37,220 nucleotides of DNA. Origin: Mycobacterium sherrisii (GTDB lineage: Bacteria; Actinomycetota; Actinomycetes; Mycobacteriales; Mycobacteriaceae). Position numbers and translations under genes: made by a program. Location of the stretch: contig NZ_LQPT01000027.1 in the NCBI RefSeq assembly GCF_002102355.1, forward strand, positions 1 to 37,220, read 5' to 3'. How positions within the stretch are numbered: position 1 is the first letter of the stretch; every line of letters starts with the position of its first letter. Positions 27,119 through 28,354 of the stretch are shown here, in pieces. The notes below the pieces were generated by a model. The model made no database searches. It worked only from the letters and a program-made list of their open reading frames with translations, and was not told the origin of the DNA.

Positions 27119-27147
27119 CTACGGTACCGTAACTTACGGTACCGTAG
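27119..27147 (+). promoter_or_regulatory. Double operator upstream of the oxidoreductase gene
   Basis: Two adjacent palindromes, each TACGGTACCGTA (27120-27131 and 27135-27146). Together they form one larger perfect inverted repeat, 14-base arms 27119-27132 and 27134-27147 around a single base. As half-site pairs they read YTACG-N4-CGTAR with centres 15 bp apart. They lie from 37 to 9 bases before the ATG and overlap the predicted promoter, so a TetR-type dimer pair would block transcription. The identical layout recurs at 28326-28354. Confidence 0.88.
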
Positions 27148-27150
27148 GCT
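27145..27150 (+). promoter_or_regulatory. Predicted -10 for a leaderless oxidoreductase mRNA
   Basis: TAGGCT fits TAnnnT and ends 5 bases before the ATG at 27156. Only 8 bases separate the operator from the ATG and no Shine-Dalgarno sequence fits there, so transcription starting at or near the A of the start codon is the simplest reading. The -10 overlaps the right end of the double operator. Confidence 0.55.
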
Positions 27151-27155
27151 GTGTT

Positions 27156-28307
27156 ATGGGCAAGAAGTACCAAGCACTCAGCGCGAATGTCGTCGACACC
27201 GCCCGGCCCACGGTCGCGGGCGCGGAGCGGCATCCCGGCTGGCACGCGCTGCGCAAACTCGCCGCGCGCATCACGACGCCGCTGCTGCCCGACGATTACC
27301 TGCATCTGGCCAATCCGCTGTGGTCTGCGCGGGAATTACGTGGCCGCGTCGTGGCGGTGCGGCGCGAGACCGAGGACTCGGCGACCCTGGTGATCAAGCC
27401 GGGCTGGGGTTTCAGCTTCGACTATGAGCCGGGGCAGTACATCGGGATCGGCCTGCTCGTGGATGGCCGCTGGCGTTGGCGGTCGTATTCGCTGACCTCC
27501 AGCCCGGTGGCGGGGTCCAAATCCGGGCGCGAGCGCACCGTGACCATCAGCGTCAAGGCGATGCCGGAGGGCTTCCTGTCCACTCACCTGGTGGCGGGCG
27601 TGGCGCCTGGGACGATCGTGCGTCTGGCCGCCCCGCAGGGAAATTTCGTCCTGCCGGACCCGGCGCCGCCGTCGATCCTGTTTCTGACGGCCGGATCGGG
27701 CATCACCCCAGTCATGTCGATGTTGCGAACACTGGTGCGCCGCAACCAGATTGGCGATATCCGGCATGTGCACTCGGCGCCTTGCGCGGCGGATGTGATG
27801 TTCGGCGCCGAGCTGACCGACCTGGCGTCGGCGCACCCCGGATACCGGCTGCAGTTGCGCGAGACCCGCACGCAGGGCCGCCTCGACCTCGGTCGCCTCG
27901 ACGACGAGGTGCCGGACTGGCGCGCCCGTCAGACCTGGGCCTGCGGGCCCGAGGGCATGCTCGCGCAGGCCGAGAAGCTGTGGGCCGCGGCCAACCTCGG
28001 CGACCGACTACACCTGGAGCGGTTCGCGGTGGTCAAGGCCGCACCGGCCGGCACCGGCGGGACGGTGACGTTCGCGCGAACTGGCCGCACGGTGACCGCC
28101 GACGCCGCGACCTCGCTAATGGACGCGGGGGAGGGCGCCGGAGTGCAAATGCCGTTCGGCTGCCGGATGGGTATCTGCCAGTCGTGCGTGGTACCCCTCG
28201 TGGAAGGCCACGTCCGGGACTTGCGCACGGGGCAGGAACACGAGCCCGGCAGTCGGGTCCAGACCTGTGTGTCGGCCGCGTCCGGCGATTGTGTACTCGA
28301 CATTTAA
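27156..28307 (+). CDS. Ferredoxin-NADP reductase-like electron donor of the desaturase (Rv3230c-like)
   Basis: Cytosolic flavo-iron-sulfur reductase of 383 residues. The order is an N-terminal helix region, FAD domain (about 60-165, with RWRSYSLTSSP binding flavin), NAD(P)H domain (about 170-275, GSGITPVMSML and CGPEGM) and a C-terminal plant-type [2Fe-2S] ferredoxin domain (about 295-383, with CRMGICQSC and a distal Cys near residue 376). It matches M. tuberculosis Rv3230c, shown to deliver electrons from NADPH to the stearoyl-CoA desaturase DesA3. The desaturase gene follows 86 bases downstream, and both have the same paired operator, supporting joint expression. Confidence 0.93.
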   Translation: MGKKYQALSANVVDTARPTVAGAERHPGWHALRKLAARITTPLLPDDYLHLANPLWSARELRGRVVAVRRETEDSATLVIKPGWGFSFDYEPGQYIGIGLLVDGRWRWRSYSLTSSPVAGSKSGRERTVTISVKAMPEGFLSTHLVAGVAPGTIVRLAAPQGNFVLPDPAPPSILFLTAGSGITPVMSMLRTLVRRNQIGDIRHVHSAPCAADVMFGAELTDLASAHPGYRLQLRETRTQGRLDLGRLDDEVPDWRARQTWACGPEGMLAQAEKLWAAANLGDRLHLERFAVVKAAPAGTGGTVTFARTGRTVTADAATSLMDAGEGAGVQMPFGCRMGICQSCVVPLVEGHVRDLRTGQEHEPGSRVQTCVSAASGDCVLDI

Positions 28308-28320
28308 AGGCTACTCATAG

Positions 28321-28354
28321 GTAACCTACGGAGTCGTAGGTTACGATAGCGTAG
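28321..28354 (+). promoter_or_regulatory. Double operator upstream of the first desaturase gene
   Basis: A perfect 10-bp inverted repeat GTAACCTACG (28321-28330) and CGTAGGTTAC (28335-28344) contains the site CTACG-GAGT-CGTAG (28326-28339). A second site TTACG-ATAG-CGTAG (28341-28354) follows with its centre 15 bp away. Both fit YTACG-N4-CGTAR, the same consensus and spacing as the pair at 27119-27147. They end 39 bases before the desaturase ATG. Confidence 0.87.

What the first reader, a model, noticed from the sequence alone, without database searches (positions are those of the whole stretch)
27119..28354. Identical double operators define a small desaturase regulon with a differently controlled paralogue
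Two promoters, of the reductase (sites 27119-27132 and 27134-27147) and of the first desaturase (28326-28339 and 28341-28354), each carry two YTACG-N4-CGTAR sites whose centres are exactly 15 bp apart. In the first, the pair also forms one larger perfect palindrome, and the sites overlap the predicted -10. Cooperative binding of two dimers is the natural reading. The second desaturase (29769) has no such site, so the two near-identical enzymes should respond to different signals. No regulator gene is adjacent; a TetR-type protein encoded elsewhere is inferred.
Basis: partly seen in the sequence, partly recalled or inferred. Interest (0 to 1): 0.8.

Follow-up and report, generated by a model that had tools for sequence, protein, structure and literature searches.

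The report
Shared switch for bacterial fat-desaturating enzymes
The paired palindromes before these two genes look like real landing sites for a repressor protein encoded elsewhere in the genome, and the same paired site stands before fat-desaturating enzymes across many actinobacteria, although the link between that repressor and this operon has already been published for the tuberculosis bacterium.

Summary
In detail: four exact YTACG-N4-CGTAR sites (expected 0.04) in two pairs with centres 15 bp apart. An exact pair occurs in 133 of 148 genus genomes, the backward control in none. The regulator can be proposed: 11 of 12 small site-bearing genomes share one TetR group, encoded directly behind the paired-site OLE1-type desaturase in 24 of 25 loci. 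Over 394 genomes its presence tracks the exact pair (201/42 against 4/147). By gene order it is Rv1019 of M. tuberculosis. Repression of Rv3230c-Rv3229c by Rv1019 is already in print (title seen in a reference list), so the core is known. Seemingly new, in what I could read: the 15-bp array, its reach across the class, and further members (acyl-ACP desaturases, PAQR/TrhA, a nitronate-monooxygenase-like enzyme, an alpha/beta hydrolase). That the second desaturase answers a different signal is not supported: it starts 103 bp after the first, same strand, with no plus-strand terminator-like site in the gap.

The parts
27119..27132 (+). operator site 1 of the reductase promoter, CTACGGTACCGTAA
27134..27147 (+). 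operator site 2 of the reductase promoter, TTACGGTACCGTAG; 8 bases lie between it and the start codon
27156..28307 (+). reductase gene (FAD, NAD and 2Fe-2S domains; Rv3230c type)
   Evidence: that fnr1-desA3 of M. kansasii is orthologous to Rv3230c-Rv3229c is stated in PMC9861118 (passages); orthology of this gene is inferred from domains and order
28311..28324 (+). degenerate third operator CTACTCATAGGTAA, 15 bp upstream of the exact pair
   Evidence: a TAC-N6-GTA site stands at that spot in 21 of 21 mycobacterial desA promoters examined, window included
28326..28339 (+). operator site of the first desaturase, CTACGGAGTCGTAG
28341..28354 (+). operator site of the first desaturase, TTACGATAGCGTAG
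28394..29665 (+). first membrane desaturase (DesA3 type, PF00487); start codon chosen by eye (ATG after GGAGGTGAGG), the ORF list gives 28358
29769..31064 (+). second, tandem desaturase (PF00487); no operator before it, possibly read through from the first; the ORF list gives 29730 as start

Best explanation
The paired palindromes are operators of a TetR-family repressor encoded elsewhere (G000:C19:22027-22668, minus strand), by gene order the orthologue of Rv1019 of M. tuberculosis and probably of SCO3129 of S. coelicolor. One dimer binds each 14-bp site. Sites 15 bp apart let two dimers, or three at the desaturase, sit side by side over the core promoter and keep RNA polymerase off the reductase and desaturase genes. 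The protein is a relative of the acyl-CoA sensor FasR over nearly its whole length, so the likely signal is a long-chain acyl-CoA that releases it from DNA and switches on oleate synthesis when it is needed. Shown here: the sites, their spacing, conservation, linkage and co-occurrence with this regulator. From papers: Rv1019 negatively regulates Rv3230c-Rv3229c (title only). Inferred: binding itself, two-dimer occupancy, cooperativity, the ligand, and read-through into the second desaturase.
For: Conservation: exact pair in 133 of 148 genus genomes, backward control in none; in 129 of 251 family genomes (control in 8) and 205 of 394 class genomes (control in 35 by my hand count). Targets: 126 paired sites in 108 retrieved loci: desA3 53, OLE1-type desaturase 25, reductase 20 (19 by script plus L076), acyl-ACP desaturase 14, NMO-like 5, HlyIII/PAQR 4, E1 2, AMP-ligase 1, hydrolase 1, and one between type I FAS and an acyl-CoA ligase. 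Regulator: of twelve small site-bearing genomes, eight have only 2-6 TetR matches; 50 of their 85 TetR matches were retrieved, and one orthologue group appears in 11 of the 12. It is encoded just behind the OLE1-type paired-site desaturase, same strand, in 24 of 25 loci. Over the same 394 genomes: regulator present with site 201, present without 42, absent with site 4, absent without 147. The recognition helix VSKPVVYEHF is invariant in the 10 aligned. Co-loss: in two 3.3-Mb genus genomes (G075, G115) the regulator gene is broken beside glmU, no pair is found at up to 2 mismatches, and desA3 is broken or undetected. Ligand: FasR structures are the best PDB hits, E 6e-38, profile positions 17-221 of 232; six FasR tunnel and spine positions are all hydrophobic here (mapped by hand). 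Prior work: title of the Rv1019/Rv3230c-Rv3229c paper.
Against: No exact pair lies in the regulator's own mycobacterial neighbourhood (0 of 42 loci), so it would not control itself there through this site. 42 of 243 genomes with the regulator lack an exact pair; of 5 such regulator loci looked at, 3 have a 1-mismatch pair and 2 have nothing close. One 95%-complete genome (G677) has a pair but no regulator match above the border; in family f29 only 3 of 7 genomes with the regulator have the pair. The association is not corrected for phylogeny. The class control is not clean (matches in 35 genomes, mostly large ones). A 2020 paper assigned Rv1019 to mfd. TrcR also binds the desA3 region in M. 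tuberculosis. No binding was measured here.
Confidence: 0.88

Rival explanations
1. FasR (Rv3208 type) owns the sites.
For: Also an acyl-CoA-sensing TetR with a similar recognition helix (VSKPVLYQHF); present in many of the small genomes (group B). One pair lies before type I FAS (L045).
Against: Not the TetR linked to the paired-site desaturases. Among the retrieved TetRs of G507 and G179, which carry the pair, there is no clear group-B orthologue (G179 best 32% over 125 residues; one weak partial G507 match was not retrieved). In G243 only 3 of 21 TetR matches were retrieved, so nothing is said about it.
Confidence: 0.04
2. MadR (Rv0472c), the known mycolic-acid desaturase regulator, owns the sites.
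For: TetR protein controlling desA1 and desA2 through acyl-CoA (PMC8872791 passages).
Against: Its consensus is TCTGTG-N7-GT, and desA3 was not up-regulated on madR deletion.
Confidence: 0.01
3. The response regulator TrcR, or CO2/stress control, is the main regulator and the palindromes are secondary.
For: PMC11895460 passages: TrcR ChIP targets include desA3 and Rv3230c, and both are CO2-induced.
Against: Does not explain a symmetric operator conserved with a linked TetR across the class; not tested here.
Confidence: 0.04
4. The palindrome acts in RNA, as a terminator or hairpin.
For: The scan flags 27119-27147 as terminator-like.
Against: The same 15-bp array of separate palindromes recurs before many unrelated genes with different inner bases; the following bases (GCTGTGTTAT) are not a clean T run.
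Confidence: 0.02

Closest known systems
Rv1019 / SCO3129 / Cg1098 TetR regulators
   Same: Rv1019 by gene order (glmU-TetR-mfd, genes read by eye, numbers recalled); reported by title to repress Rv3230c-Rv3229c. Cg1098 is called the orthologue of SCO3129, which regulates SCO3128, SCO3130 and itself (PMC8303971 passage); that SCO3129 belongs to the same group is my inference.
   Different: In the window's genus the regulator is away from these targets and has no exact pair of its own. The 15-bp array and wider regulon were not seen in the texts I could read; the Rv1019-Rv3230c paper and the SCO3129 paper were not readable.
FasR of M. tuberculosis (structures 6o6n/o/p)
   Same: Relative over nearly the whole chain, with the acyl-tunnel positions hydrophobic.
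   Different: Scores 116 bits against the 330-bit FasR equivalog cut-off; FasR is described as an activator.
FabR of E. coli and DesT of P. aeruginosa
   Same: TetR proteins that control unsaturated fatty acid synthesis. FabR also controls the PAQR protein TrhA (PMC9017321 passages); the operator here precedes HlyIII/PAQR genes in four loci.
   Different: FabR equivalog score is weak (24 bits, cut-off 151); no chain named DesT among the 60 PDB hits shown of 197.
QacR-type double-dimer binding
   Same: A TetR protein binding as a tetramer to a 28-bp palindrome (QacR, passage of PMC4482099).
   Different: Here the units are separate full palindromes repeated at 15 bp, up to four in a row in G563.

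Membership tests
Rv1019/SCO3129-type regulon | Orthologous TetR present in the genome | tested here: met
   G000 best E 3.5e-109; orthology to Rv1019 itself rests on gene order, not on its sequence
Rv1019/SCO3129-type regulon | Operator pair before a desaturase | tested here: met
Rv1019/SCO3129-type regulon | Regulator encoded next to the controlled desaturase | tested here: not met
   met at 24 of 25 OLE1-type sites but not in the window's genome, where it lies on another contig beside glmU
Rv1019/SCO3129-type regulon | Regulator binds the operator and represses | not testable with these tools
   published for Rv1019, title only seen
FasR | NCBIfam FasR equivalog score | tested here: not met
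   116 bits against 330
MadR regulon | TCTGTG-N7-GT site and response to madR loss | not tested
   the operator consensus differs by reading; desA3 not up-regulated on madR deletion in the paper
DesT | Sequence relation to DesT | tested here: inconclusive
   no chain named DesT among the 60 best PDB hits shown of 197

The most novel reading that the evidence does not exclude
One orthologous TetR and one invariant operator array form a class-wide membrane-unsaturation regulon. In different actinobacteria it captures whichever desaturase is in use (OLE1-type, DesA3-type, acyl-ACP type, and perhaps a nitronate-monooxygenase-like enzyme in tiny genomes, as a candidate alternative desaturase). It also takes in the PAQR/TrhA membrane protein, which E. 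coli places under FabR, a repressor with a different operator: two lineages wire PAQR to unsaturated fat synthesis separately.
Probability: 0.6. Interest if true: 0.68.

Novelty: new member of a known kind. Interest (0 to 1): 0.52.

Why it matters
Oleate synthesis by DesA3 supplies membrane and storage lipids in mycobacteria. The operator gives a precise handle: a 29-bp element that may predict, in many actinobacteria, which genes are under this control. It re-reads a regulator tied in papers to a DNA repair gene and, in Streptomyces, to osmotic stress as a lipid-unsaturation repressor. It also gives poorly understood genes (PAQR/TrhA, the NMO-like enzyme, an alpha/beta hydrolase) a testable role in membrane lipid balance.

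Tried and rejected
MadR was considered first and dropped on published motif and deletion data. AlkX (Rv3249c) was considered; the paper text holds none of the terms palindrom, motif, binding site, desA3 or inverted repeat. FasR was the second widespread TetR group and was set aside because linkage points elsewhere. The own genome's single sites outside the window were checked: L002, L007, L008, L009, L010 and L357 have no TAC-N6-GTA neighbour at 15 or 30 bp; L001 has one at 15 bp. L007 and L009 look like copies of one repeat near contig ends. A paper search for an oxygen-independent desaturase named UfaA, recalled by me, found nothing useful, so the role of the NMO-like gene stays a lead. The structure prediction came back only, with mean pLDDT 50 (22 close sequences); it is all-helical but too poor to use, so no fold search was made.

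Full report
1. The observation. The window holds exactly four YTACG-N4-CGTAR sites, at the coordinates given (expected 0.04). They form two pairs with 15-bp centre spacing, one before the reductase (27156) and one before the first desaturase (28394). Single sites mean little by themselves: the window's genome has 11 in 5.56 Mb, against 25 for the backward pattern. The genome is a Mycobacterium by inference: the best named relatives of its regulator protein, M. numidiamassiliense and M. triplex, are 97% identical.

2. A missed third site. The desaturase promoter carries a degenerate site, CTACTCATAGGTAA (28311-28324), another 15 bp upstream. A TAC-N6-GTA site stands at that spot in 21 of 21 mycobacterial promoters examined: the window and 20 genomes that I picked from earlier hits. 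The reductase promoter is less regular: in the same 21, four have a single exact site (L337, L341, L345, L356), the others two. Exact triple arrays occur in another genus of the family (L067, L068, L070). In G563, labelled f21 g52, there are four sites in a row; I take this genus to be Streptomyces from genome size and gene content, not from a name.

3. Conservation and spacing. The exact pair occurs in 133 of 148 genomes of the genus, with no match to the backward control. Of the 15 without it, 9 have a pair with one or two mismatches (the control matched in 3 of the 15; I did not check that each lies at desA3). The other six are G003 (72% complete), G025 (80%), G032 (93%), G106 (91%), G075 and G115. 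In 60 genus genomes with gaps of 0-25 allowed, 72 of 75 listed plus-strand matches have gap 3. In the family, 129 of 251 genomes and 22 of 31 genera have the exact pair; the control matched in 8 genomes. In the class, 205 of 394 genomes and 74 of 137 genera have it; the control matched in 35 genomes by my hand count, mostly large ones.

4. What the pair controls. I classified 126 paired sites in the 108 loci that the tools retrieved (up to 30 per search, so a sample, with several loci from related genomes). Counts: DesA3-type desaturase 53, OLE1-type desaturase 25, reductase 20, acyl-ACP desaturase 14, NMO-like 5, HlyIII/PAQR 4, dehydrogenase E1 2, AMP-ligase 1, alpha/beta hydrolase 1, and one between type I FAS and a long-chain acyl-CoA ligase. 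The query proteins for the rarer classes were taken from these loci themselves. The script left two unclassified: L076, a reductase, and L045, the FAS locus read by eye. The median distance from site to start codon is 18-26 bp for DesA3, reductase and acyl-ACP genes and 69 bp for OLE1 types. Families were checked on representatives: PF00487, PF03405, PF03060, PF03006, PF00676, TetR_N; HlyIII also passes the TrhA/PAQR cut-off.

5. The regulator. I listed TetR genes in twelve small site-bearing genomes (85 matches) and compared the 50 retrieved with each other and with 30 of the own genome's 128. One group recurs in 11 of the 12, including the two small-genome members of the window's own family (G179, G243); it was not found in G425, which is 86% complete. 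Its gene lies directly behind the paired-site OLE1-type desaturase, same strand, at 24 of 25 sites; in the other (L075) it is not within the locus. Over the class, the best match to this group is either below 1e-67 or above 1e-38. I set the border at 1e-60 after seeing this. Present and site 201, present and no site 42, absent and site 4 (G425, G456 and G470 at 86, 70 and 77% completeness; G677 at 95%), absent and no site 147; Fisher p 9e-63, uncorrected for relatedness (handles copied by hand). Within family f16 it is 6 of 6 against 0 of 6; within f29 only 3 of the 7 genomes with the regulator have the pair.

6. Which protein it is. In the window's genome it is G000:C19:22027-22668, divergent from a glmU-like gene. 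An mfd-like gene follows, directly in a Rhodococcus (L253) and after one gene in M. wolinskyi (L231), read by eye. From the recalled M. tuberculosis gene order this is Rv1019; I had no Rv1019 sequence to compare. PMC8303971 (passages) states that Cg1098 is the orthologue of SCO3129, which regulates SCO3128, SCO3130 and itself; that SCO3129 belongs to this group is my inference.

7. Prior knowledge. PMC9861118 (passages) cites a 2022 paper whose title says that Rv1019 negatively regulates the Rv3230c-Rv3229c operon. I could not read it and do not know whether it maps the operator. PMC9579286 (passages) reports Rv1019 as a repressor of mfd. In 42 mycobacterial regulator loci, mostly with 3 kb on each side, there is no exact pair, and only one place (L245) comes within three mismatches, so control of mfd or of itself through this operator looks unlikely there. 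The searches behind the statement that the array and wider regulon are not in the texts read were made; most subscription papers are not in that library.

8. Natural loss. In two 3.3-Mb genomes of the genus, G075 and G115 (leprosy-bacillus-like in size; unnamed), the regulator gene is broken: its pieces lie in more than one frame or carry stops. They are the same gene, 83% and 63% identical to the own-genome regulator in their main piece and beside glmU. No pair is found at up to two mismatches. desA3 is present only as stop-ridden pieces in G075 and is not detected in G115. The parts were lost together.

9. Mechanism. The best solved relatives are FasR structures, E 6e-38 over profile positions 17-221 of 232; 6O6N is named in the FasR paper PMC7382501 (passages). 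Six FasR tunnel and spine residues (L98, L106, F123, F138, V163, L185) align to L81, L89, L105, I120, I146 and L168, all hydrophobic (mapped by hand with Tyr77 as anchor). The protein is not FasR itself (116 against 330 bits). A long-chain acyl-CoA signal is therefore likely, but which chains, and whether saturation matters, is open. Sites 15 bp apart should place neighbouring dimers on largely opposite faces of the helix (geometry, not tested). A predicted structure was too poor to add anything (mean pLDDT 50).

10. The paralogue. The second desaturase has no site. It starts 103 bp after the first ends, same strand. The scan shows no plus-strand terminator-like site in the gap; one lies inside the first gene (29518-29540) and one on the minus strand at 29781-29767. 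Of 20 other loci, the two with a tandem copy, L342 and L355, also have no exact site before it. Read-through is the simpler reading, not a shown one.

11. A further target in this genome. The single site at G000:C2:18494 has a relaxed neighbour exactly 15 bp away and precedes an alpha/beta hydrolase. That protein is 45% identical over 271 residues to the hydrolase behind an exact pair in L309. The relaxed core occurs at about 3 in 100,000 positions (four offsets tried at six loci), so this is unlikely to be chance.

12. PAQR. E. coli TrhA belongs to the FabR unsaturated-fatty-acid regulon (PMC9017321, passages). Four paired sites here precede HlyIII/PAQR genes in three families (L072, L311, L322, L323). 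The same coupling under a different operator suggests a shared need. The E. coli paper reports an effect on membrane energetics rather than fluidity.

Noticed in passing
window 28394-29665 and 29769-31064: The tandem desaturases share a block of about 540 bp that is nearly identical in DNA (56-60 of 60 bases per bin) beside more diverged parts, as after gene conversion.
   Followed up: partly
L072, L311, L322, L323: HlyIII/PAQR (TrhA) genes stand directly behind the paired operator in three families.
   Followed up: partly
L082, L096, L313-L315: A nitronate-monooxygenase-like gene (PF03060, about 475 aa) follows a pair (L082, L096) or a triple array (L313-L315, in 1.5-1.8 Mb genomes).
   Followed up: partly
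L045 (G243): A pair lies between a type I fatty acid synthase and a long-chain acyl-CoA ligase, read by eye.
   Followed up: no
L073, L074: A pair precedes a pyruvate-dehydrogenase-type E1 alpha gene, possibly tied to fatty acid primers.
   Followed up: no
L001, G000:C2:18494: A pair with one relaxed site precedes an alpha/beta hydrolase after a KatG-like gene, a likely further target in this genome.
   Followed up: partly
window 24208-26518: Wax ester/triacylglycerol synthase and polyphosphate kinase 2 genes lie just upstream of the reductase.
   Followed up: no
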